A DNA stretch of 64,000 nt from a bacterium (GCA_030685015.1 JAUXWS010000028.1:1-64000); one strand, 5' to 3'. Positions 14,790 to 59,468 are shown, numbered from the stretch's first letter. Program-made: numbers and translations. The notes: generated from the letters alone by a model not told the origin.

Positions 14790-16335
14790 CCCGGATTCTG
14801 CAGTTGGCGGTCAGGTGTGACACATCAGCATGCTGCAGTTGGCTCCAGCAGGGGGATGGGCAACTGCTCTGCAATTGGGACTTGCTGTGAAAGCCGTGCC
14901 AGAGCGGCTTGAAAGCCTGTCCACCAAGTGTCGGTTGCGGAATAGCGCAGCAACCTCTTTCGTCCCGAGCGTCCGAGCGAGGTGGCGCAGACGAAGAAGC
15001 GAAAGCGAAGTGTCTCAAGCACATGGCGCTTTCCTTCCTCCGTGGGCCGCGATGCCGGACGCAAGCCAATCCGGTCCTGGAAGTGCTGGATAAGGTTGTG
15101 CAACAGCATCAGCGTGCGCAGCACGCACTCCGTGGCGCGAAAGGACTCCAGGCAAAAGCCTTCCAGGCCACAGCCGCGCTTGAGTTCCTTGATGCGATTC
15201 TCGAACTCCCCACGGGCATTGTAGGTGCGGTAGACCGTCACCGCATCCATCTGGTCCTCGGACAGACTCGTCACGATGGCCTGGAACAGGTAGCCCTTCA
15301 GTTCGAACAAGCGCCGTCCATGCGCCGGCGTTGCCTTCTTGGCCTCCTCCTGGCGGATCACCACCAACCGCCGCGCCTGCTTCCATCCCAGCAACGTGAC
15401 CTGTGTTTCGGCCACCTCGATCCCCGGCGCCACCTGCTGCCAGGTTTCGATGTTGATCGCTGCCCGTTTCACTTGCTTGGTCATCCGCGCCTTGATCAGA
15501 TAGGGCAGGAGGAGCGTCTCCAGGAACGTCAGGAGCACGTCGGCGAAAAAGCCGCTGTCCGCCCGCACCCGGGCAATGGTCGCGCGCCCCTCTGCCAAGG
15601 CCAGGCACTCCGTGACAAAGCCCACAGCATGATTGCCCGCGGCGGCGTTGCCCGCCCGCAGCCATCCATGCAGCAGCCAGCGGCATTCTGCCAGGCCTGC
15701 CAACAGCGGATGGTGCGATCCCCGCCCTGGGCGACGTGGGTTGTAGCCCCGCGCCACGCCCTCCTGAGTGCCCCAGCGCTCCAGCACCGTGCTATCAAGG
15801 TCCAGCGTGTAGCCCTCCTCACGTGCGGGCAGCAGGCCCAGACCCCACCGGGTCAGCGTGCCGAAGACATCCTCGCCCTGCTGGCGAGTGAAACTCTGGA
15901 AAAATCGGGCATAGGTCGTCGGGGCGCAGAAGCGCTTGACCCCGAACATCGCCCGCAGGGGCTGGTCCGTCCGCAGCCGCTCCAGGTGAAGAAAGCGGCT
16001 GGCCCCCGTCAATACCCCGGCCAGGAAGCCGACTAGGTGATCCGCGACGGGCAGGGCATTGGGGCTGGTCCGCTGGAACCCGCCCAGGGCGTGCTCGACC
16101 ACCCGCCGAAACCCGATCGCTTCGCAAAACGACGCGAACACTGCTAGCCCTCCCCAGGCGGTTAGAGGCTTCGAACTCAGTCCAAGCACGAGCTCTTGAC
16201 CACCCATTGCCCTAAGTTTCGTCTGCACCGTCTGGTCCCTCCGTTGATGTTACCTGTTGGCTTCGAACACCCAGGTAATCAACAAGATCAGACGGTGCTT
16301 TCCTCTTCACTGGCTGGGCAATTGCAGAATCCGGG
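14790..16335 (-). mobile_element. Complete IS1380-family insertion sequence
   Basis: This 1546-bp element has 17-18 bp imperfect terminal inverted repeats: CCCGGATTCTGCAGTTGG at the left and the complement of CCCGGATTCTGCAATTGC at the right. It is flanked by the direct duplication TTGAA (14785-14789 and 16336-16340). It carries a single full-length transposase gene on the minus strand. All structural parts are intact, so it is likely a recent and possibly still active insertion. Confidence 0.93.
14825..16228 (-). CDS. IS1380-family DDE transposase
   Basis: The product has 467 residues, a normal length for the IS1380 family. The catalytic triad is readable as Asp in YTLDLDSTV, Asp in RVRADSGFF and Glu in GEFENRIKELK; the last is the typical family motif around the catalytic Glu. 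A conserved C-terminal stretch (LMLLHNLIQHF) follows. The N-terminal region (residues 1-120) is the DNA-binding part. The gene fills most of the IS between its inverted repeats, with no frameshift or stop. Transcription runs from the right end of the element. Confidence 0.95.
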   Translation of the reverse strand: MQTKLRAMGGQELVLGLSSKPLTAWGGLAVFASFCEAIGFRRVVEHALGGFQRTSPNALPVADHLVGFLAGVLTGASRFLHLERLRTDQPLRAMFGVKRFCAPTTYARFFQSFTRQQGEDVFGTLTRWGLGLLPAREEGYTLDLDSTVLERWGTQEGVARGYNPRRPGRGSHHPLLAGLAECRWLLHGWLRAGNAAAGNHAVGFVTECLALAEGRATIARVRADSGFFADVLLTFLETLLLPYLIKARMTKQVKRAAINIETWQQVAPGIEVAETQVTLLGWKQARRLVVIRQEEAKKATPAHGRRLFELKGYLFQAIVTSLSEDQMDAVTVYRTYNARGEFENRIKELKRGCGLEGFCLESFRATECVLRTLMLLHNLIQHFQDRIGLRPASRPTEEGKRHVLETLRFRFFVCATSLGRSGRKRLLRYSATDTWWTGFQAALARLSQQVPIAEQLPIPLLEPTAAC

Positions 16336-20314: not shown

Positions 20315-23300
20315 ATGCCCCGCAAGAAAGCCTCTCCAGGGAGCGAAGCGAAGGGGCGCGTCGACGCCCTGCGGCACACGGCCACCCGGGCCAACAATCC
20401 GCCGGCCGGGCTGGAAGGGGCGGGCTCCATCGCGCCGCTGCCGCCGCTGCGCCATGAGTACAATCCGCACTTGTCACCCGCACTGCGCACCAGCGATGAT
20501 CCGCTGAAGACCGACCGCCTGCCCGAGCTGCTGGAGACTGCCTGCCAGCGCGCCCTGACGGAAGAGGAGGCGCGGCTGCTGGCGGAGGCCCTGCGCCGTC
20601 ACGAGCCCTGGCTGGAGTGGAGCGGCAAGCGCGAGGCGCCCTGGTTCGTGACCGACCCCGTGGCCCTGCACATCCACGAACGGGTCTCCACCCAGGCCAT
20701 CCTCAAGGTGCTGGCGCGGGAGGACGTGCAGCGCGACCTCTTCGCCGACCCGCAGCAGAGCTACGCCCAGGCCGTGCAGTTCTACCAGCACGAGGTGGAC
20801 TGGGCCAACCGCCTGATCCTGGGGGACAGCCTGCAGGTGATGGCCAGCTTGGCCAGGCGGGAGAACCTGGCCGGCAAGGTGCAGATGATCTACCTGGACC
20901 CGCCCTACGGCATCTCCTTCAAGAGCAACTTCCAGCCCAGCCTGGGCCAGCGCGACGTGAAGGACCGCGTGCAGGACCTGACCCGCGAGCCGGAGATGGT
21001 CAAGGCCTACCGCGACACCTGGACCCTGGGCATCCACAGCTACCTGGCCTACCTGCGCGACCGCCTGATCCTGGCGCGGGAGCTGCTGGCGGAGACGGGC
21101 AGCATCTTTGTCCAAATCAGCGACGAGAACCTGCACCGGGTGCGGCTGGTGATGGATGAGGTGTTCCGCACTGAGAACTATGTCGCCTCGATCCAATTCC
21201 AGAAAACCACATCGGCGACCAACACCTACATACCGATCGTCTCGGACACGTTGCTGTGGTACGCGAAGGATGCGACGAAGACCAAGTACCGCCCTGTATA
21301 CAACGAGAAGCAGCCAAGTGGTGAAGGTGCGGATCACTACCGCAACGTGTTCCTGCCTTCCGGAGAAAGACGACAGTACGAGAACGGAGAGCGACTGCCC
21401 AAGGGCGCAGATCTCTTCACAGCAGACAATCTTACTTCAGCCAGCATTGGTCGTGATAAAGGAGAAGGGGCGGCGTGTTGGTTTCCTGTCTCGGTTGACG
21501 GAAAGGAGTTCACGCCGAATGAGAAGAACCGCTGGAAGACCAACGAGGAGGGCATGCGCCGTCTGATCGGAGCGGAGCGTGTCATGGCTCAGGAAAACAC
21601 GCATCGCTACTTGAGGCGACTCTCAGATTTCTCGGCCTATGCTCAACATTCGCTTTGGACGGATGTGGGTGGCGCGCCAGATCGAGTCTACATCGTGCAG
21701 ACCAACAATCGAGTCATCGAGCGTTGCCTGCTCATGACCACCGACCCTGGTGATCTGGTGTTGGATCCCACCTGCGGCAGCGGCACCACGGCCTTCGTGG
21801 CGGAGCAGTGGGGGCGGCGCTGGATCACCTGCGACACCAGCCGCGTGGCCCTGGCCCTGGCCCGCCAGCGCCTGCTCACCGCCAAGTACGCCATGTACAA
21901 GCTACGCCCCCTCAGCGCGGAGGACCTGGAGCGCAACCCCAAGGGTGCCTGGCTTCCGGCTCCTTCCCCCTCCCAGGGGGAAGGCCGGGATGGGGGTTCA
22001 CCACCGACTTCACGCTTCACCTTCCAGTGCAAGACCGTCTCCCACATCACCCTGAAGAGCATCGCCCGCAACAGCTCCCTGGACCCCATCTTCGCCCGCC
22101 ACGAGCCCATCCTGGCGGCGCATCTTGCGGAGTTGAACGCCGCCTTGGCGAAGGTGACGCCCGAGCTGCGCCGCACCCTGGCCACCAAGCTGCTGGAGAA
22201 GCAGAAGAAGGAGGGCAAGCGCGCCATCAGCGAGGCTGACCGCCGCCGCTGGCAACTACCGGACAGCGCCTGGCGGGAGTGGGAGGTCCCCTATGACACC
22301 GACCCGGACTGGCCCGCGCCGCTGGCCCGGGCGCTGGCCGCCTACCGCGCCGCCTGGCGCGCCAAGATGGACGAGGTGAACCGCTGCATCGAGGCCAATG
22401 CCCCGCTGGAGGAACTGGTGGACAAGCCGGATCCCGTCGGCGGCGTGGTGCGGGTGGCCGGCCCCTTCACGGTGGAGGGCGTCATCGCCCGCGAGGAAGG
22501 ACCGGACAGCCCCATCGGCGGCGCGCCGGACGGGGAGCTGGAGACTTTCGCCGGCGCAGCCGGCCTGGGCGCGGCCGTCAACGCGGAGGCCCACCTGCAC
22601 AAGATGCTGCGCCTGCTCAAGGCCAGCGGCGTGGACTTCCCCGGCAACCACAACCAGCGCTTCCTGGGCCTGGAGCCGCTCAGCGAGGCCGGCCTGCTGC
22701 ACGCCGAGGGCGAGTGGAGCACGGACGGCGGCACCCGTCGAGTGGCTGTCAGCATCGGCCCCGCGATGGGCAACCTCAGCGCCTGGCAGGTGGAGGAGGT
22801 GGTGCGCCAGGCCAGCCGGCGCGGCCACGACGAGCTGGTCTTCGCCGCCTTCGGCTTCGATGCCGCCGCCCAGGACGCCATCGAGCAGGCCCAGCATCCC
22901 CACCTGCGTCTGCACATGGCGCTCATCCGACCCGACGTGGCCATGGACGACCTGCTTAAGACCCAACCCGGCAGCCAGATCTTCACCGTCTTCAGCGCGC
23001 CGCGGGTGAAGGCGCCCGAACGACAGGGCGACGGTCAGTTCGTGCTTGAGGTGGAAGGCATGGATGTCTACGACCCGGTGGGGAACACGCTCCATCCCAC
23101 CAGCCGGGAGCGCATCGCCGCCTGGTTCCTGGACGGCGACTACGACGGCCGCACCTTCTGCATCAGCCAGGCCTTTTTTCCCGACCACACCAAGTGGGAC
23201 CGGCTGGCCAAAGCCCTGGGCGACGTGGGCGCCGTGGAGCAAAGCGCCTTTGCGGCCTTGCGCGGCTTCCGAAGCCTGCCCGTACCGCGCCCGGCGCGCC

Positions 23301-23404
23301 ACAAGCCCGGCGAACGTTGGCGCGTGGCGGTGAAGGTCATCGATCCGCGCGGCAACGAGGGCCTGCGCGTGGTGGAGATGCCGGACGAAGGAGCGCGGCC
23401 ATGA
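20315..23404 (+). CDS. Type III-like DNA adenine methyltransferase (Mod)
   Basis: The product has 1029 residues, longer than the usual 600-700 for type III Mod proteins. Motif IV (DPPYG, about residue 195) comes before motif I (DPTCGSGTTAF, about 484), the beta-class N6-adenine order. The stretch between them is the target recognition region; its DNA is visibly lower in G+C. At about 549-562 the protein reads PSPSQGEGRDGGSPP, which is a translated palindromic repeat also found between genes elsewhere in the window. The long C-terminal part (about 570-1029) has no motif I recognise. It is the first of four overlapping genes with ATPase, DUF4276 and Res. The ribosome binding site is weak. Confidence 0.9.
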   Translation: MPRKKASPGSEAKGRVDALRHTATRANNPPAGLEGAGSIAPLPPLRHEYNPHLSPALRTSDDPLKTDRLPELLETACQRALTEEEARLLAEALRRHEPWLEWSGKREAPWFVTDPVALHIHERVSTQAILKVLAREDVQRDLFADPQQSYAQAVQFYQHEVDWANRLILGDSLQVMASLARRENLAGKVQMIYLDPPYGISFKSNFQPSLGQRDVKDRVQDLTREPEMVKAYRDTWTLGIHSYLAYLRDRLILARELLAETGSIFVQISDENLHRVRLVMDEVFRTENYVASIQFQKTTSATNTYIPIVSDTLLWYAKDATKTKYRPVYNEKQPSGEGADHYRNVFLPSGERRQYENGERLPKGADLFTADNLTSASIGRDKGEGAACWFPVSVDGKEFTPNEKNRWKTNEEGMRRLIGAERVMAQENTHRYLRRLSDFSAYAQHSLWTDVGGAPDRVYIVQTNNRVIERCLLMTTDPGDLVLDPTCGSGTTAFVAEQWGRRWITCDTSRVALALARQRLLTAKYAMYKLRPLSAEDLERNPKGAWLPAPSPSQGEGRDGGSPPTSRFTFQCKTVSHITLKSIARNSSLDPIFARHEPILAAHLAELNAALAKVTPELRRTLATKLLEKQKKEGKRAISEADRRRWQLPDSAWREWEVPYDTDPDWPAPLARALAAYRAAWRAKMDEVNRCIEANAPLEELVDKPDPVGGVVRVAGPFTVEGVIAREEGPDSPIGGAPDGELETFAGAAGLGAAVNAEAHLHKMLRLLKASGVDFPGNHNQRFLGLEPLSEAGLLHAEGEWSTDGGTRRVAVSIGPAMGNLSAWQVEEVVRQASRRGHDELVFAAFGFDAAAQDAIEQAQHPHLRLHMALIRPDVAMDDLLKTQPGSQIFTVFSAPRVKAPERQGDGQFVLEVEGMDVYDPVGNTLHPTSRERIAAWFLDGDYDGRTFCISQAFFPDHTKWDRLAKALGDVGAVEQSAFAALRGFRSLPVPRPARHKPGERWRVAVKVIDPRGNEGLRVVEMPDEGARP
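21961..22000 (+). repeat. Palindromic repeat copy A inside mod
   Basis: About 40 bases with the pattern CCTTCCCCCTCCCAGGGGGA followed by AGGCCGGGATGGGGGTT. The first 20 bases form an inverted repeat of CCTTCCCCCT and AGGGGGAAGG type. The same word occurs between genes at 38084-38123, 38141-38180 and, inverted, 40372-40410. Here it is in frame and without a stop codon. Confidence 0.9.
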
Positions 23405-24633
23405 TCTCGGACTATCTGCCCATCCGCCGCCTCTCCCTGCTGCGCTTCCGCAGCCTGGAGCAGGCGGAGATCGACTTCCACAATCCGCTTTTTCTCGTTG
23501 GCAAGAACGGCGCGGGCAAGAGCAACATCCTCAAGGCCCTGCGTTTTATCAGCGACTGCATGTCGCAGCCCCTGGAAAGCGTCATCGAGAACCAGGGCGG
23601 CTTGAATGTGGTGTGCTTCCGCTCGAACACAAGCCTTCGACCTGCCTCCACGGGGTTGCGTCTGGATTTCCAGATCGGCCAGGATCCGTTGACCAGGGGC
23701 TGGTATGCGTTCGAGTTGCGGGCCTTGAAGGGACGTGATTTCGAAGTGACGCGGGAGAGCTGTCGCCTTGTCCATCCTTCGGCCTCCGTCCACTTTGACC
23801 GCGGAAAGGCCCGGTTCAGCACCAACCTGCCGGGCATCGCCCCGACCGTGGAGCCGCGCGACCTGCTGATGCCGTTGCTTTCCGGCACGCCGCAGTTGGC
23901 TCCCGTGGCGGCCCTGCTCAAAGGCCTCCGTGTCTATTCCATTCTTCCGGCGGAGATCCAGAAGTCACAACAGGTGGACTCCGGACAGGTTCTGAGGCCG
24001 GATGGCGGAAACGTGGCGACGATGCTGGGCCATCTTTCCTCGAAGGAGGGCGGTAAAGGACGCCTGCTCGATCTGCTCCGCACCGTGATCCCGGAAGTGA
24101 CCCGGGTGGACGCGAGACGGTGGGGCGACCGAATCAGCCTGGAGTTCCGGCAGAAGTCGACAAGCGGCGCGGACGCGGCATCGGGCGACCGCTCCGTGAC
24201 ACATCCGGCTTCGGCCATGTCCGACGGCACCCTGCGCGCCCTGGGCATCCTGGTGGCCTTCCTGCAGAAACCTCGGCCAACCCTGCTGGCGCTCGAGGAG
24301 CCGGAGACCACGCTGCATCCAAGCGCGCTGCACTCGATCCTTGATTTGGCGCGCTCCTTCACCACGGACACCCAGGTGGTGGTGACCACCCACAGTCCCG
24401 ACCTGCTGGACATCAAGTGGCTGGAACCCGAAAACCTGCGCCTGGTGGTGTCCGAAGGTGGCAGGTCCGTAGTGCTGGAAGTGGGCGAGGCCGCACGAAG
24501 CGTGATGCGCGACCACATCATGGGCGCTGGTGAGCTTTTCCGGTCCTATGCGCTGCGCCCGGAAGTACGGCCGGCAGCGGTCCATGAAGGGCCGCCGCCG
24601 CCCTTCGACCTCTTCACGGAGGTCAGGCCATGA
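23401..24633 (+). CDS. AAA family ATPase (OLD/RecF-like)
   Basis: The product has 410 residues. Walker A is GKNGAGKSN (about residues 38-46) after an N-terminal LRFRSLEQAEIDF strand of the SMC/RecF/OLD type. The signature-like stretch AMSDGTLRALGILVAF (about 273-288) is followed by Walker B LLALEEPETTLHP (about 298-310) and the switch His in TTHSPDLLD (about 326-334). There is no Toprim nuclease domain of its own; the next gene may supply it. It starts within the mod stop codon (ATGA) and overlaps the DUF4276 gene by four bases, so it belongs to the restriction operon. ATPase plus Toprim pairs occur in several phage-defence systems. Confidence 0.88.
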   Translation: MISDYLPIRRLSLLRFRSLEQAEIDFHNPLFLVGKNGAGKSNILKALRFISDCMSQPLESVIENQGGLNVVCFRSNTSLRPASTGLRLDFQIGQDPLTRGWYAFELRALKGRDFEVTRESCRLVHPSASVHFDRGKARFSTNLPGIAPTVEPRDLLMPLLSGTPQLAPVAALLKGLRVYSILPAEIQKSQQVDSGQVLRPDGGNVATMLGHLSSKEGGKGRLLDLLRTVIPEVTRVDARRWGDRISLEFRQKSTSGADAASGDRSVTHPASAMSDGTLRALGILVAFLQKPRPTLLALEEPETTLHPSALHSILDLARSFTTDTQVVVTTHSPDLLDIKWLEPENLRLVVSEGGRSVVLEVGEAARSVMRDHIMGAGELFRSYALRPEVRPAAVHEGPPPPFDLFTEVRP

Positions 24634-25241
24634 TCCTGGCCTTTGTCGAAGGGGAAGGCGAGGCACTAGCCGTGCCGCTGTTACTGCGTCGCCTGGTGTG
24701 GGAGATGCAGGTTTTCGATGTCCAGATCGGCACCGCCGTGCGTCGCACGAGGGATCGATTGGCCGGCAGGGATGGCTTGCGGGCGACGATGGATCTGGCG
24801 CGCAGGATCAAGGATGTCGAGGGCGTCTTGTTGCTGCTGGATGCCGATGATGACTGCCCTGCGGTAGAAGGACCCCGCATCACCGAATGGCTGCGGGATG
24901 TGGCGCCGGATGTCAGAAGCGGCCTGGTGATGGCCAATCGTGAGTACGAAGCCTGGTTTCTGGCATCCTGGGAGACCATGACCGAAACGGGCGACCGGGC
25001 TCGCCTGATGAATGATCCGGATGTTCCACGTGATGCCAAGGGTCGGGTTGCGCGTGGCTTGGGCATCCGCTACCACGAGCCATTCGACCAGGTGAGACTT
25101 ACCAACCTCATCGATTTGCGAGTGGCGGCGCAACGCTCCCGCTCCTTCCGCAAGCTGGTGATGGAGGTGGAGCGGCTGCTCCGCCGATGCGGCCGCCAGC
25201 CCATCTCTTTCCTCGGCGAGGTATCCCATGGCCAAGGCTGA
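24630..25241 (+). CDS. DUF4276 Toprim-like protein
   Basis: The product has 203 residues. The N-terminal FVEGEGE motif (Glu at about 7, 9 and 11) and LLLLDADDDCP (about 69-79) match the Glu...Asp-x-Asp layout of the Toprim fold seen in the DUF4276 family. A conserved MANREYEAWFLAS stretch follows (about 93-105). This is consistent with a metal-dependent nuclease or regulatory partner of the ATPase encoded just upstream; the two genes overlap by four bases. It overlaps the Res gene by 14 bases. No catalytic data can be claimed from sequence alone. Confidence 0.82.
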   Translation: MILAFVEGEGEALAVPLLLRRLVWEMQVFDVQIGTAVRRTRDRLAGRDGLRATMDLARRIKDVEGVLLLLDADDDCPAVEGPRITEWLRDVAPDVRSGLVMANREYEAWFLASWETMTETGDRARLMNDPDVPRDAKGRVARGLGIRYHEPFDQVRLTNLIDLRVAAQRSRSFRKLVMEVERLLRRCGRQPISFLGEVSHGQG

Positions 25242-28200
25242 CGAACTGCCCCTGCCCATCCAGCCCGTCGCCCAGCCCATCCTCTGCTCGCCCTACCGGG
25301 AGCCGGACCAGCACTGGTTCTACGACACGGCCACGGGCATTCCCTCCCAGCGTCCGGGACGCCGACCGGCGAGCTATTGGTTCAAGACGGAGCGCACGGG
25401 CTCCGCCCAGATGGATCTGCTGGCCGAGGAGGAGCGGGACGATCTTCCTTTGGTGAACGCCTTGCGTGACGACGTGCGCCGTTGGAGGCAGTCGGGCTGG
25501 GAGGGCGCCTCCGAGACCACCAAGAAACTGCTGCGGCACTGGTGGCGCGAGGACCGCGGCCGTCGGCTCTTCTTCTGCCAGGTGGAGGCGGTGGAGACGG
25601 TCATCTACCTGCGGGAGATCCTCGATCAAGGGCGCAAGCCCCGTTGGAACACGCGGATCACCCAGGCCGACTACGAGAAACTGTGCCGAGGAGTGAATCC
25701 GCGCCCTGACAATTGGCGTGCCCGTGTGGCCCAGCACCCCAAATTGATCGACCGCCCCCACGAAGCCAGCGCCAAGGACCTGGTCCGCCACGCTTGCAAG
25801 ATGGCCACGGGCAGCGGCAAGACCGTCGTGATGGCCATGGTGATCGCCTGGGCCTTCTGCAATCGGGGAGCGAAACCCGGTGATCCTCGCTATCCCCGTC
25901 GCGTGCTGGTGGTCTGCCCCAACCTGACCATCCGCGAGCGTCTGGCCGTGCTGTCCTGGTCGGACCCGGGCAACTACTACGAGAAGTTCGATCTGGTGCC
26001 GGCCAACCTACGCGAGGATCTCGCCAAGGGGCAGGTGCTGGTGACCAACTGGCACCTGTTCAACGAAACACCGGAGGAGCAGAAAGTCGGCGGTGTGGCG
26101 ATCAAGCGCCTGGGCCAGGAGACTCCCGAGGCCTTCGCCCGCAACCGCTTGGGCGACCTGTGGGACGACGAGCCCTTGCTGGTGCTCAACGACGAAGGCC
26201 ATCATGCCTACCGCCCGGCGCCTGTTCCGGATGATGCGGATCTGACTGCGGACGAGCGGGCCGACCGCGAGGAGGCCACGGTCTGGGTGGCGGGGTTGGA
26301 TCGCATCCAGGCCGCCTGCGGCATCGCCTTCTGTGTGGATCTCTCCGCCACACCCTTCTACATCAAAGGCAGTGGTTATCCGGAGGGTTCACCCTTCCCC
26401 TGGATCGTCAGCGATTTCAGCCTGGTGGATGCCATCGAGAGCGGCATCACCAAGATCCCCCGCTTGCCGGCGATGGACAACACCGGTCGGCCCGATCCCA
26501 AGTACTTCCATCTGTGGGACCACATCACCCGCGACCTGAAGGCCGGCGAGCGCTTCACGGGCGGCAAACCCAAACCCGAGGTGGTCTATCGCAAGGCGGA
26601 GGACGCCTTGCTGACCTTGGCGGGCGAGTGGCGGGAGCGGCACGAGCAGATCCTGGGAGCCGCTCCCGGCCAGGATCGCACGCCACCCGTGCTGATCATC
26701 GTCTGCGACAACACCCAGATCGCACAGGAGTTCTTCCGCGTCATTTCCGGGGAGAGTCTGGTGAAGCGGAAGAATGAGGCGGATGAAGATGATCTGGAAG
26801 ATGAGGAGGATCATGGTAAGGCCCGCCGGAAGAAGCGGTCAAAGCACATCAAGGCGTACAGTGCGGGACTGAAAGGCTTCGCGGAGTTCTGGAACCGTCC
26901 AGGCGTGGATGTGACGATCCGGATTGACACGGAGCTGTTGTCCCAGGCCGAGAGCGACAAGGTGGATGCCACGCGCAAAGAAGCGGCCGAAGCGCTGCGG
27001 CGTGTCGTCTCCACCGTGGGTCGCCTCGGCGAACCGGGGGAGAAGGTCCGCTGCGTGATCAGCGTGAACATGCTCAGCGAAGGTTGGGACGCCAACAATG
27101 TGACGCACATCCTGGGCTTGCGTGCCTTCCGCAGCCAGCTTCTGTGCGAGCAGGTGGTGGGGCGTGGCCTGCGGCGGATGGACTATGAGCCGGATCCTGC
27201 CACGGGTCTTCTGACACCCGAGTACGTGGACATCTTTGGCGTGCCCTTTTCCCTGATCCCCTTCAAGGGCCGCCAGCCAGGAACGGGGGCGCCCCAGGAG
27301 GACCGGCCACGGCACGAAGTATTGGCCCTACCGGAGCGGGCAACCTTTGAGATCCGCTTCCCGAATGTGGAGGGATACGTCGTCGACTTGCGGCGACACG
27401 TCATTCGCTGCGACGTGGATCGGGTCGAGACCACAACATTGGATCCCAATCGCATGGTCAAGGAGGCTTTCGTACGGCCGCAAGTGGGATATCAGGTTGG
27501 CTATCCTGGGCAGTACGGCGGCTTCGGGTTCGAAGGCCGGGATCGTCACGCCTACTATGGCTCCATGCATCCCCAGACCATCGCATTCGAGATTGCCAGG
27601 GGGATCGTGTATCAACTGACGACCTCGTCCTCCGATGGATCAAAGGCCTGCAGCCGCATTGGGCGTGCTGCCCTCTTTCCACAAGTGCTGAACATTGTCG
27701 AACAGTATCTGGCCCGCCGGGTTCGATACAACGGCATGCATCCTTGCGAAGTCGGCCTGGAAGAGTATGTCTTGGGGATCACCTCCTTGCTGGTGGCTGC
27801 CATCGAACCTGATGAATCCGCTGGCGAGACACCTCTTCTTCCCCGTTTGAACCGGTACCGGCCATTGGGCAGCACCGCGCAGGTCCATTTCAAGACCGTC
27901 AAGCCCGTGGTGGCAACGGTCGCCAGCCACATCAATTTCGTCGCCTGTGACACCAGGACCTGGGAGCAGGCGGCAACGGCCCAGTTGGAGGCCTTGGCAA
28001 TTGGCGGGTGGATCCAGTGCTATGCGCGGAATGACCACTTGGAGTTCCAGATCCCCTACGACTGGTATGGACATCCACGCAGTTACGAACCGGATTTTCT
28101 GGTTCGACTGCCTGATGGCAGGATGTTCATCTTAGAGATCAAGGGCCTGCCACATGAAGAGACGGAGGCGAAGCACCAAGCAGCCCAAAGATGGGTGTCA

Positions 28201-28302
28201 GCAGTCAACCACTTCGGCCAGTTGGGGATGTGGCAGTTCCATGTCTGCTGGGATCCACAACAGCTTCGGGCGGAACTTCAGCAGCTGATCTCATCCTGGT
28301 AG
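25228..28302 (+). CDS. Type III-like restriction helicase-endonuclease (Res)
   Basis: The product has 1024 residues. Helicase motifs: Walker A MATGSGKT (about 192-199), DExH-box LNDEGHH (about 321-327), motif III LSATPF (about 371-376), then a second RecA domain with NMLSEGWDANNVTHILGLRAF and the motif VI-like QVVGRGLRRMDY (about 640-652). The C-terminal nuclease is PD-(D/E)XK: YEPDFLVRL (about 953-961) and FILEIKG (about 967-973). It cuts DNA unprotected by the mod product if the system works as in known type III enzymes. A 14-base overlap with DUF4276 shows the operon. The 3' part is lower in G+C than the 5' part. Confidence 0.9.
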   Translation: MAKADELPLPIQPVAQPILCSPYREPDQHWFYDTATGIPSQRPGRRPASYWFKTERTGSAQMDLLAEEERDDLPLVNALRDDVRRWRQSGWEGASETTKKLLRHWWREDRGRRLFFCQVEAVETVIYLREILDQGRKPRWNTRITQADYEKLCRGVNPRPDNWRARVAQHPKLIDRPHEASAKDLVRHACKMATGSGKTVVMAMVIAWAFCNRGAKPGDPRYPRRVLVVCPNLTIRERLAVLSWSDPGNYYEKFDLVPANLREDLAKGQVLVTNWHLFNETPEEQKVGGVAIKRLGQETPEAFARNRLGDLWDDEPLLVLNDEGHHAYRPAPVPDDADLTADERADREEATVWVAGLDRIQAACGIAFCVDLSATPFYIKGSGYPEGSPFPWIVSDFSLVDAIESGITKIPRLPAMDNTGRPDPKYFHLWDHITRDLKAGERFTGGKPKPEVVYRKAEDALLTLAGEWRERHEQILGAAPGQDRTPPVLIIVCDNTQIAQEFFRVISGESLVKRKNEADEDDLEDEEDHGKARRKKRSKHIKAYSAGLKGFAEFWNRPGVDVTIRIDTELLSQAESDKVDATRKEAAEALRRVVSTVGRLGEPGEKVRCVISVNMLSEGWDANNVTHILGLRAFRSQLLCEQVVGRGLRRMDYEPDPATGLLTPEYVDIFGVPFSLIPFKGRQPGTGAPQEDRPRHEVLALPERATFEIRFPNVEGYVVDLRRHVIRCDVDRVETTTLDPNRMVKEAFVRPQVGYQVGYPGQYGGFGFEGRDRHAYYGSMHPQTIAFEIARGIVYQLTTSSSDGSKACSRIGRAALFPQVLNIVEQYLARRVRYNGMHPCEVGLEEYVLGITSLLVAAIEPDESAGETPLLPRLNRYRPLGSTAQVHFKTVKPVVATVASHINFVACDTRTWEQAATAQLEALAIGGWIQCYARNDHLEFQIPYDWYGHPRSYEPDFLVRLPDGRMFILEIKGLPHEETEAKHQAAQRWVSAVNHFGQLGMWQFHVCWDPQQLRAELQQLISSW

Positions 28303-28316
28303 GGCCGGTCGCCAGA

Positions 28317-30032
28317 TCAGGCCGCAGGCATGCCTTTCCAATCCTCCAGCAGCCGCTGCCGCAGCCCGCCGAAGGATCCGTTGCTGAAAATGACCCATAA
28401 ATGGCGCTCCGGCGGGAGGGCGGCCAGGCGCTCCCAGCCGCTCTCGGGGCATTGACCCGAAAGCAGGGTTCGCAGCATGTCGGCGATGCGGGCCGGGTCG
28501 TCCTCCTGGAGGAAGGCAACGCCCCGCTCACCCAGGTTTCGCCGCGTGGCGGCGAAATCGAAAAGTTCGGTCCGCTCATACTTCCAGGGTCGATGCAGGC
28601 CGCCCATCACCACGGCGTCGGCTCCCGAAAGGCTATCCATCCAGGCCTCCTGCATCACATTGCGCACGCTGGTGTTGGAGCGGGGCTCGACCAGCGCCGT
28701 GATCATCCGGTCCGGGTGCTTGTGCCGCAAGGCGGCGAGCGCCTCCCGCACCGCCGTGGGATGGTGCCCGAAATCGTCATAGAGCAACAAGCCATCCTTG
28801 CAGGTGTAGCCGTCCATCCGTCGGGCCGGGCCTTTGAAGTCCTGCAGCAGCTCCAGCGCCCGCCGCCGGTCGCCGCCGCAGCTGTCCACCACGGCCAGGG
28901 CCGCCAGAATGTTGCGGCCATTGTAGGCGCCGCCCAGTGGGGATCTGACCGACACCTCCATCATGCGATCGGGCTGTCGCAGGCTCGCCCGGCCAAGCGC
29001 CGCCGCCTGTCCCCGGGACAGACGCGCCGCGTCACTCCCCGGAAACAGTGTTGCGCAGCGAGTGGCCAAGTTGTCCATCGGCTCGCTTGTGGCCGCATTT
29101 GACTTGGCCAGATCTCGCACCCAGGCGGGATCTTCGGGCAGGGCGAAGCGGAAGAGACTGCCGGTGGGCAGCGCTTCCTCGCCGAGAAGGCGGTAGGCGC
29201 TGTCCGCTGACGCGCCGAAACCCACCAAAGGGGCCAGACCGCGGGCCGCCGCCGCGACGGCCTCGTCGCTCTCCGCGTTCAGCAAGACCAGCCCGTTCTC
29301 CGGCACTTGGTTGACCAGGCGGCGGAAGGCGGTGCGGATGGCTTCCAGGTCGCTGAAGATGTCGGCGTGGTCGAATTCCACATGATTGATCACCAGCACG
29401 CGCGGCCAATAGTGGAAAAACTTGCTGCGCTTGTCGTAGAAGACGCTGTCGTACTCGTCGCCCTCGCTGACAAAGGGTGCTCCTTCCGCCCCGATGGGGC
29501 GCAGGCTCTCCCCCAGCCCCCCCGGCCGTCCCCCGATGAACCAGCCGGGCTGCAGCCCCAGCTGCTCCAGCAGCCAGGCCGCCAGGTTGGCCGTGGTCGT
29601 CTTGCCGTGGGTGCCGCTGATCACGACGGATCTGGCGCCGGGCAGGAACTCGTGGCGAAGCACCTCCGGCAGCGAGGTGAGGGGACAGCCCAGGGCCAGG
29701 GCCTCCTCCAACTCCGGATTGCCCCGCGGTATGGCGTTGCCCACCACCACGCGCAGCTCCGGATGCCGCTCCCGCCAAGCCCGGACGCGACCCCGGGCAT
29801 AGCCCTCCTCCCACGTCACGCCCGCCTCGCGCAGCATGTCGGACATGGGCGGATAGATTCCCTGGTCCGAGCCGCCCACGGTCTGGCCCATCCGCCGGAG
29901 GCAGATGGCCAGCGCCCCCATCGCCACGCCGCCCACGCCGATGATCCAGGTCGCGCCCCCGCTGTTCCGGGCCCTTGGCCCGTTCTGCCGGGCCTTCGGC
30001 CCGGCCTTGCGGGCGCCATCCTGTTGTTGCAT
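28317..30032 (-). CDS. mpl: UDP-MurNAc:tripeptide ligase, peptidoglycan recycling
   Basis: The product has 571 residues of the Mur ligase family: an N-terminal nucleotide-binding strand (WIIGVGGVAMGALA), the ATP-binding loop SGTHGKTTTANLAAWLL, the central SEGDEYDSVFYDKRSKFFHY typical of Mpl, NHVEFDHADIF, and YDDFGHHPTAVREAL in the C-terminal domain. Mpl joins recycled L-Ala-gamma-D-Glu-meso-DAP to UDP-MurNAc, which implies a meso-DAP peptidoglycan and recycling. A good AGAGGA ribosome binding site precedes the ATG at 30032, so the odd 26-residue N-terminal extension, with its repeated GP(K/R)AR motif, appears real. It is convergent with res and divergent from the response regulator. Confidence 0.93.
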   Translation of the reverse strand: MQQQDGARKAGPKARQNGPRARNSGGATWIIGVGGVAMGALAICLRRMGQTVGGSDQGIYPPMSDMLREAGVTWEEGYARGRVRAWRERHPELRVVVGNAIPRGNPELEEALALGCPLTSLPEVLRHEFLPGARSVVISGTHGKTTTANLAAWLLEQLGLQPGWFIGGRPGGLGESLRPIGAEGAPFVSEGDEYDSVFYDKRSKFFHYWPRVLVINHVEFDHADIFSDLEAIRTAFRRLVNQVPENGLVLLNAESDEAVAAAARGLAPLVGFGASADSAYRLLGEEALPTGSLFRFALPEDPAWVRDLAKSNAATSEPMDNLATRCATLFPGSDAARLSRGQAAALGRASLRQPDRMMEVSVRSPLGGAYNGRNILAALAVVDSCGGDRRRALELLQDFKGPARRMDGYTCKDGLLLYDDFGHHPTAVREALAALRHKHPDRMITALVEPRSNTSVRNVMQEAWMDSLSGADAVVMGGLHRPWKYERTELFDFAATRRNLGERGVAFLQEDDPARIADMLRTLLSGQCPESGWERLAALPPERHLWVIFSNGSFGGLRQRLLEDWKGMPAA

Positions 30033-58229: not shown

Positions 58230-59468
58230 ATGAGCAGCACAAAGCAAAGCCCTCTGCCCCGTCTGGCCGCCGGGGGCCTCAAGAAGGCCCTGGCGCTATC
58301 CCCCGTCGTTGTGCTCACCGGGGCGCGGCAGACGGGCAAGACCACCCTGGTGAAGGCTCTGCCTGAACTGGCCGGCCGGCCCTACCTGAGCCTGGACGAC
58401 CTGGACCTGCGCACCCAGGCCCTGGAGGAGCCGGAGGCCCTGGCGCGGCGCGCTCCCGCCCTCGTGCTGGATGAAGTGCAGCGGGCAAAGGACCTGCTCA
58501 TCGCCGTCAAGCGCGTCGTGGATGAGGATGCCCGGCGCACTCCCGGCCGCTTCGTGCTGACCGGATCGGCCAACCTGCTCATGCAGGAGCAGGTCGCGGA
58601 GAGCTTGGCCGGTCGCGCCGTCTACGTCCAGCTCTGGCCTTTCACCCGCCGCGAACGCCTGGGCCTGGGGCGGGCCGGCGCTTGGAGCCGCCTGCTGGAG
58701 ACGCCCTCGGCGGACTGGGCGCGCTGCCTGCGCGAGGAGGCCGGTCCGCGGGAGGACTGGCGCGACGCGGCCCGGCGCGGCGGGATGCCCGTGCCCAGCC
58801 TGCTGGAGGACCCCGAGGCCCGGCGCCTGTGGTTCTCCGGTTACGTGCAGACCTACCTGGAGCGCGACTTGCAGATGCTGCGCTCCGTGGCGGGCTTGCC
58901 CGACTTCCGCCGCCTGATGCGCGCCGCCTGCCTGCGCATGGGCGGCCTGCTCAACCAGACCGAACTCAGCCGCGACACGGGCATCGTGCAGCCCCAGGTG
59001 CACCGCCACCTGGGCCTGCTGGAGGCCAGCTACCAGGCCGTGCGCCTGCCGGCTTTTTCGGTCAACCGCACCAGGCGGCTGATCAAGGCGCCCAAGCTCT
59101 ACTGGAGCGACACGGCCCTGGCCCTGCACTTGGCCGGCGAGACGGAGCCCCGCGGCGCCCACCTGGAGAACCTGGTGCTGGCGGACCTGCTGGCCTGGCG
59201 CGACGCCCAGGCGGAGACGGTGAGCCTGCTCTACTGGCGCACGGCCACGGGCCAGGAGGTGGACTTCGTGGTGGAGACGCCGCGCCGCCTGCTGCCGGTG
59301 GAGGTCAAGGCCGCCACCCGCGTCCAGCCGGCCGACGCCAGGGGCCTGGAGGCCTTCCTGGACGAGTACCCGGACCTGGCCGAGGGCGGCCTGCTCCTCC
59401 ACGCGGGCGAGGAGGCCTTCCCCCTGACGCGCCGGGTCTGGGCCGCGCCCTGGTGGCAGGTATGTTGA
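58230..59468 (+). CDS. AAA_14/DUF4143-type ATPase
   Basis: The product has 412 residues. Walker A is TGARQTGKTTLV (about 30-41) and Walker B PALVLDEVQRAKD (about 79-91). A central YVQTYLERDLQMLRSV segment (about 210-225) and a C-terminal DUF4143 part with ETVSLLYWRTATGQEVDFVVE (about 330-350) resemble the PD-(D/E)XK-like fold typical of this family. Members are widespread, often mobile, and without an assigned role. It sits between two sets of envelope genes. Its stop codon overlaps the start of P4 by seven bases, so P4 and P5 are probably translated with it. The insertion of such a gene here may be secondary. Confidence 0.88.
   Translation: MSSTKQSPLPRLAAGGLKKALALSPVVVLTGARQTGKTTLVKALPELAGRPYLSLDDLDLRTQALEEPEALARRAPALVLDEVQRAKDLLIAVKRVVDEDARRTPGRFVLTGSANLLMQEQVAESLAGRAVYVQLWPFTRRERLGLGRAGAWSRLLETPSADWARCLREEAGPREDWRDAARRGGMPVPSLLEDPEARRLWFSGYVQTYLERDLQMLRSVAGLPDFRRLMRAACLRMGGLLNQTELSRDTGIVQPQVHRHLGLLEASYQAVRLPAFSVNRTRRLIKAPKLYWSDTALALHLAGETEPRGAHLENLVLADLLAWRDAQAETVSLLYWRTATGQEVDFVVETPRRLLPVEVKAATRVQPADARGLEAFLDEYPDLAEGGLLLHAGEEAFPLTRRVWAAPWWQVC

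What the first reader, a model, noticed from the sequence alone, without database searches (positions are those of the whole stretch)
20315..28302. Type III-like Mod and Res split by an OLD-type ATPase and a Toprim-like gene in one overlapping operon
Seen: mod, ATPase, DUF4276 and res overlap by 4, 4 and 14 bases. Known: ATPase plus Toprim-type pairs act in several phage-defence systems, and type III systems normally have only mod and res. Inference: a composite defence operon where restriction and an ATPase/Toprim effector are co-regulated, perhaps with the second pair acting when the first fails. Mod is also unusually long (1029 residues, with about 450 C-terminal residues not explained).
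Basis: partly seen in the sequence, partly recalled or inferred. Interest (0 to 1): 0.68.

Follow-up and report, generated by a model that had tools for sequence, protein, structure and literature searches.

The report
Restriction operon carrying a plug-in defence pair
A bacterial DNA-restriction operon carries, exactly between its methylase and its nuclease gene, an already catalogued ATPase and nuclease-like gene pair that probably acts as a second line of phage defence, and that junction turns out to be a recurrent, interchangeable cargo slot for defence genes in related restriction systems.

Summary
In detail: mod (20315-23404), ATPase (23401-24633), DUF4276 (24630-25241) and res (25228-28302) overlap by 4, 4 and 14 bases. 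The outer pair is a type III-like restriction-modification (R-M) system (PADLOC MTase_III; NCBIfam BPTD_3080 restriction endonuclease). The inner pair is already catalogued: PADLOC HEC-01A/HEC-01B, named for embedding in the Hma system. The 1029-residue Mod is normal for its family (median matched length 947 residues).

(1) In 103 related mod/res loci the junction is a cargo slot: 36 are tight, 59 hold at least 600 bases, and the cargo turns over faster than mod/res. It includes HEC-01, PDC-M07, a CD-NTase/Cap15 CBASS, TIR, GmrSD and OLD-like genes. (2) ATPase-DUF4276 pairs elsewhere lie inside Hma, BREX, DISARM, type I and another type III-like locus, and also stand alone. DUF4276 folds confidently (pLDDT 93); its best structural match is an RloB-like protein, and E7/D71 are placed as in Toprim nucleases.

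Most likely the pair is a self-contained ATPase-gated Toprim-type abortive-infection module carried by an R-M operon. Activation by R-M failure is plausible but untested. The exact four-gene order was seen only here.

The parts
20315..23404 (+). mod: type III-like (beta-class motif order) DNA methyltransferase, 1029 aa; catalytic domain about residues 189-516, family-specific C-terminal 440 residues of unknown function
   Evidence: Pfam N6_N4_Mtase 2e-30; PADLOC MTase_III PDLC03632 5e-182; PDB relatives EcoP15I Mod and 6k0w Mod; C-terminus conserved family-wide
23401..24633 (+). OLD/RecF-type ABC ATPase without a Toprim domain, 410 aa, Walker A GKNGAGKS, Walker B LLALEEPE; HEC-01A
   Evidence: Pfam AAA_21 7e-31; PADLOC HEC-01A 2.5e-100; weak PDB relatives PtuA, OLD, AriA, GajA
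24630..25241 (+). DUF4276 protein, 203 aa, HEC-01B; predicted Toprim-type effector with E7, D71/D73 and E107 as candidate active-site residues
   Evidence: PF14103 2.6e-10; HEC-01B 7e-52; AF2 pLDDT 93.4; invariant D71, E107 and near-invariant E7; top BFVD match RloB-like, E 0.011, prob 1.00; no PDB match at E<=1e-3
25228..28302 (+). res: SF2 helicase with C-terminal PD-(D/E)XK-like motif (EPDF...EIKG), 1024 aa, BPTD_3080 restriction endonuclease family
   Evidence: NF046055 916.8 bits, cutoff 800; ResIII; motifs read from the translation
23401..25241 (+). cargo module occupying the mod-res junction (the variable slot)
   Evidence: Junction is 21-40 bp in the nearest cargo-free relatives L014 and L043 and carries a different pair in L011-L013; window pair is closer to an Hma-embedded pair than to the pair in the orthologous slot

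Best explanation
A type III-like R-M operon carrying, in the mod-res junction, a self-contained two-gene defence module: an OLD/RecF-type ABC ATPase sensor and a DUF4276 (RloB-like, Toprim-type) effector. Mod methylates host DNA and Res cleaves unmethylated invading DNA. The ATPase is proposed to hold or gate the Toprim-type nuclease until an infection cue (a phage anti-restriction protein, stalled restriction or DNA ends) triggers it; the nuclease then cuts tRNA or DNA and stops growth. The junction is a permissive, co-transcribed cargo slot, so the pair is an interchangeable second-line guest rather than a fixed subunit of the R-M enzyme. Shown: gene order, homology, slot variability, module promiscuity, predicted fold. 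Inferred: gating, nuclease activity, target, trigger.
For: The pair matches HEC-01A/B. ATPase immediately followed by DUF4276 is conserved: 28 of 32 DUF4276 loci elsewhere have a Walker A ORF directly upstream, many with a 4-bp overlap. The pair lies between HsdM and HsdS (L180), between BrxC and PglX (L187), directly before DrmA-DrmB (L168), in Hma (L169, L191) and after mod of another type III-like R-M (L181), and often with no recognisable host system, so it is self-contained. The mod-res slot is empty in L014, L043-L046, L015 and L019 and otherwise holds unrelated cargo. In the 6-row clade of the window Res (support 100/100) contents are HEC-01, PDC-M07 and none; presence/absence needs at least 7 changes on well-supported branches. 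The window ATPase is 40% identical to the Hma-embedded L169 ATPase but 24% to the one in the orthologous slot L012, while Res is 69% identical to L012. DUF4276 model pLDDT 93.4 with E7 after strand 1 and D71/D73 after the third core strand, as in Toprim. It and the sequence-unrelated partner from L012 both have the same RloB-like top match, prob 1.00. RloB is linked to OLD_TOPRIM and to type I R-M operons and AbiL (PMC10440598); AriA/AriB and PrrC act as R-M guardians (PMC12707154, PMC12409363).
Against: No experiment. No PDB fold match at E<=1e-3, so the Toprim assignment rests on topology, motif and a sub-threshold (E 0.006-0.011) RloB match. The second acidic residue D73 is not invariant in the alignment. 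No AriB model matches DUF4276. The exact four-gene order was seen once.
Confidence: 0.6

Rival explanations
1. True guardian: the pair specifically monitors this R-M system and fires when Mod/Res is inhibited (as PrrC does for EcoprrI or PARIS for Ocr).
For: Nested inside the operon with translational overlaps; the same kind of pair recurs inside methylation-based systems of five classes; published precedents (PMC12707154, PMC12839542).
Against: The slot also carries cargo with its own unrelated triggers (CBASS, TIR, GmrSD), and most ATPase-DUF4276 pairs had no methylation-based host next to them, so coupling to R-M status is not required.
Confidence: 0.3
2. The ATPase and DUF4276 protein are accessory subunits of the restriction enzyme itself, modulating DNA recognition or cleavage.
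For: Four coupled genes in one operon.
Against: The closest mod-res relatives lack the pair entirely with full-length, 65% identical Res (L014, L043); the pair exists without this R-M.
Confidence: 0.06
3. Passive hitch-hiking: the slot tolerates insertion without polar cost and the pair gains only expression, with no defence function (for instance a regulatory or toxin-antitoxin pair).
For: Some cargo is not recognisably defence: a Y1 transposase-like ORF by eye (L017), GNAT (L093) and DUF2442/DUF4160 (L109).
Against: 10 of 18 PADLOC-scanned slot loci hit defence models at E<=1e-10 versus 1 of 10 control window genes; HEC-01 was defined by embedding in defence loci.
Confidence: 0.12

Closest known systems
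HEC-01 (PADLOC, Hma-embedded candidate 1; guilt-by-embedding preprint doi 10.1101/2024.01.29.577857, not held here, seen as cited in PMC12988326 and PMC12255303)
   Same: Same two families in the same order: HEC-01A ATPase and HEC-01B DUF4276
   Different: Host here is a type III-like R-M system instead of Hma
RloAB / AbiL
   Same: ABC ATPase plus small partner found in type I R-M operons and an Abi system (PMC10440598); DUF4276 model's top BFVD match is RloB-like; ATPase matches AbiLi
   Different: No sequence-level match of DUF4276 to an RloB or AbiLii model; host R-M is type III-like
PARIS (AriA/AriB)
   Same: Separate ABC ATPase and Toprim-type partner, R-M-linked backup role proposed (PMC12707154, PMC12409363)
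   Different: No AriB model match for DUF4276; AriA matches are generic
PrrC/EcoprrI and DarTG2 inside type I R-M
   Same: Second-line toxin embedded between R-M genes (PMC12707154, PMC12255303)
   Different: Different effector families; type I hosts
OLD-ABC/TOPRIM backup effectors of BREX and DUF499 (Hma) systems (PMC12839542)
   Same: Same class of module inside methylation-based loci
   Different: That survey covered BREX and BREX-related loci, not type III-like mod/res
EcoP15I-type type III R-M
   Same: Mod and Res composition, Mod homology
   Different: Longer Mod, Res not matched to PDB type III Res by phmmer, embedded cargo

Membership tests
HEC-01 pair | ATPase matching a HEC-01A model | tested here: met
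   PDLC04178 E 2.5e-100, residues 6-391 of 410
HEC-01 pair | adjacent DUF4276 protein matching a HEC-01B model | tested here: met
   PDLC04196 E 6.8e-52; PF14103 over cutoff; 4-bp overlap
HEC-01 pair | embedded in an Hma operon | tested here: not met
   Flanking genes are MTase_III mod and BPTD_3080 res; Hma embedding seen in L169
BPTD_3080 / type III-like R-M | Res over the NCBIfam cutoff | tested here: met
   NF046055 916.8 bits, cutoff 800
BPTD_3080 / type III-like R-M | cognate type III Mod next to Res | tested here: met
   PDLC03632 4.7e-182; mod/res pairs in 103 loci
BPTD_3080 / type III-like R-M | ATP-dependent cleavage and methylation of an asymmetric site | not testable with these tools
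   needs enzyme assay or methylome
canonical two-gene type III R-M | operon of mod and res only | tested here: not met
   two embedded genes; but L014, L015 and L043-L046 show the two-gene form
PARIS | AriB-family (DUF4435) Toprim partner | tested here: not met
   only HEC-01B models hit
RloAB / AbiL | RloB-type OLD_TOPRIM partner | tested here: inconclusive
   structure top match RloB-like, prob 1.00, TM 0.52/0.50, E 0.011; no sequence-level model match
Gabija / OLD | ATPase and Toprim fused in one protein | tested here: not met
   410-aa ATPase ends after the ABC domain; partner separate
MADS | MAD3 ATPase over the curated cutoff | tested here: not met
   96 bits vs cutoff 420
Toprim nuclease | E after strand 1 and DxD after the third core strand in a Toprim fold | tested here: inconclusive
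   E7 and D71/D73 at these positions in a confident model, but no PDB Toprim match at E<=1e-3

The most novel reading that the evidence does not exclude
The mod-res junction of BPTD_3080-type restriction systems is a general, exchangeable bay for second-line defence, and ATPase-DUF4276 (RloB-type) modules are general plug-in guardians of methylation-based immunity, occupying type I, type III-like, BREX, DISARM and Hma loci because they sense inhibition of restriction.
Probability: 0.3. Interest if true: 0.72.

Novelty: new variant of a known kind. Interest (0 to 1): 0.52.

Why it matters
It extends the embedding principle (PrrC and DarTG in type I, OLD-ATPase/Toprim in BREX and Hma) to a type III-like family that I did not find treated this way in the papers searched, and gives a simple discovery rule: genes between mod and res in this family are strong candidates for new defence effectors (several slot proteins have no family match at all). 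It also makes a clear test possible, because naturally cargo-free and differently loaded versions of one R-M system (65-70% identical) exist for comparison.

Tried and rejected
Mod C-terminus as an unexplained fusion: rejected, it is family-wide; a PDB profile search gave only noise. DUF4276 as AriB or DUF4435: no model match. DUF4276 against the PDB by sequence or fold: no credible match (the two nominal hits are de novo designed barrels matching 34 C-terminal helix residues). Profile comparison of DUF4276 with the L012 partner: not significant (prob 0.4), though the predicted folds agree. Viral contigs: no relative of Res; the DUF4276 alignment was too diverse to scan with. Plasmids: no DUF4276 match. 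Paper searches for DUF4276: none. The HEC-01 preprint is not in the library, so I could not check whether it already lists type III hosts. The genome search gave only 5 genomes in the window's own phylum, so no close-relative comparison.

Full report
OBSERVATION. The four ORFs and overlaps are exactly as described: mod 20315-23404 (1029 aa), ATPase 23401-24633 (410 aa), DUF4276 24630-25241 (203 aa), res 25228-28302 (1024 aa), overlapping by 4, 4 and 14 bases, with Shine-Dalgarno-like stretches inside the end of each preceding gene. The operon lies alone between an amylase-like gene upstream and, convergently, a Mur-ligase-type (Mpl-like) gene (28317-30032, minus) (names by eye). Third-position GC falls from 0.86 (mod) to 0.80, 0.73 and 0.78 in the next three genes, compatible with, but not proof of, separate origin of the cargo.

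IDENTITY. Mod is PADLOC MTase_III (5e-182), related to EcoP15I Mod. Res is over the cutoff of NCBIfam BPTD_3080 restriction endonuclease, with helicase motifs and a C-terminal EPDF...EIKG nuclease-like motif read. The ATPase is HEC-01A (2.5e-100) and DUF4276 is HEC-01B (7e-52). HEC stands for Hma-embedded candidate (PMC10855318, PMC12988326).

MOD LENGTH. Mod proteins of this family match over a median of 947 aa (808-1138, n=75); their C-terminal 440 residues are conserved with 24 invariant positions. The length is ordinary; the function of that region is open.

THE SLOT. I collected relatives of Res from genomes, plasmids and flanking DNA, and measured the mod-res gap. Among 103 loci with both genes, 36 have a gap under 240 bp and 59 have at least 600 bp; both gene orders occur (mod-res 34, res-mod 69). 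These counts come from tblastn boundaries and simple ORF calls, so individual small inserts are approximate. Insert proteins fall into many unrelated clusters. Contents include: PDC-M07-type ATPase plus an unmatched 205-aa protein (L011-L013), a CD-NTase plus Cap15 CBASS pair (L050), a CAP12-type TIR protein/PDC-S35 (L085), GmrSD (L065, L128), OLD/AriAB-like ATPases (L126, L132), PDC-S11 (L066), PDC-S13 (L067), DUF3800 (L036, L102), NYN (L075), STAND-like (L020). Ten of 18 PADLOC-scanned slot loci hit a defence model at E<=1e-10; 1 of 10 unrelated window genes did, a small control. The same genome carries a second type III-like locus with a Schlafen AlbA_2/HATPase protein exactly between res and mod (L195 7712-14573).

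TURNOVER. In the Res tree, the fully supported six-member clade around the window has HEC-01 (window), PDC-M07 (three) and no cargo (two); absence/presence of cargo needs at least seven changes on well-supported branches. The window ATPase is 40% identical to the ATPase of the Hma-embedded pair in L169 but 24% to the one in the orthologous slot of L012, while Res is 69% identical to L012. The modules were exchanged, not inherited together.

THE PAIR ELSEWHERE. In 32 further DUF4276 loci, 28 have a Walker A ORF directly upstream. At least six lie in a methylation-based system: HsdM-pair-two small ORFs-HsdS (L180), BrxB-BrxC-pair-PglX (L187), pair-DrmA-DrmB-PLD (L168), HmaB-pair-HmaC (L169), DUF1156 methylase-pair (L191), res-mod-pair in another BPTD_3080 locus (L181); L161 is a probable seventh. 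The rest have no obvious host system, so the pair can stand alone. Neighbours were inspected only two genes out, so this fraction is a lower bound.

STRUCTURE. AlphaFold2 of DUF4276 on 24 homologues: pLDDT 93.4, pTM 0.90. E7 (near-invariant) follows strand 1, D71 (invariant; D73 frequent) follows the third core strand, and E107 (invariant) follows the next strand, the arrangement expected of a Toprim site. Foldseek gave no PDB match at E<=1e-3, but the top viral-library match is an RloB-like protein, full length, prob 1.00, E 0.011. The L012 partner, not alignable by profile, gives the same order of helices and strands (pLDDT 79) and the same top match. RloB is linked to OLD_TOPRIM domains and to type I R-M operons (PMC10440598). 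Hence two sequence-unrelated RloB-type partners appear to have entered the same slot of the same R-M system.

MECHANISM. Best reading: R-M operon plus a guest ATPase-gated Toprim-type abortive module (0.6). The guardian reading (0.3) is a narrower version of it with a specific trigger, so the two are not exclusive. Precedents: PrrC in EcoprrI, PARIS sensing Ocr (PMC12707154, PMC12409363), DarTG2 between hsdS and hsdR with that site called a hotspot (PMC12255303), OLD-ABC/TOPRIM backup effectors in BREX and DUF499 systems (PMC12839542). Whether the trigger is failure of this R-M system is not shown; the diversity of other cargo suggests the slot itself does not require such coupling.

NOVELTY. 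Known pair, known principle, new host class and a slot-level generalisation: a new variant of a known kind. I could not read the HEC preprint, so type III hosts may already be listed there.

Noticed in passing
G000 C59:55711-62572 (L195 7712-14573): A second type III-like R-M locus in the same genome: res-like helicase (REase_III 3e-18), then a Schlafen AlbA_2/HATPase_c_4 protein overlapping it by 4 bases, then an N6_N4 methylase: again a guest between res and mod.
   Followed up: partly
G000 C28:84965-88628 (L194): A third Res-like ORF next to what looks by eye like another HATPase_c_4-type protein, cut by the contig end about 24 kb beyond the window.
   Followed up: no
L050:6577-9373 (minus): A complete-looking CBASS pair (CD-NTase and Cap15 two-TM effector) embedded between mod and res of a related R-M system.
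   Followed up: partly
window 58230-59468: AAA ATPase matching PADLOC PDC-S01 (1e-106), a very common candidate family, alone among non-defence genes.
   Followed up: no
window 14825-16207 (minus): Looks by eye like a transposase gene (IS1380-like), about 4 kb upstream of the operon; possible mobility context.
   Followed up: no
L125:6255-7076, L071:2839-3993, L077:2417-3529, L038:6928-7992, L049:7451-8191: Slot-embedded proteins of 240-390 aa without any Pfam or PADLOC match: candidates for unknown defence effectors.
   Followed up: no
G005, G006, G007 (Gammaproteobacteria MAGs): These genomes hold 5-8 DUF4276 matches each, an unusual accumulation of ATPase-DUF4276 pairs.
   Followed up: partly
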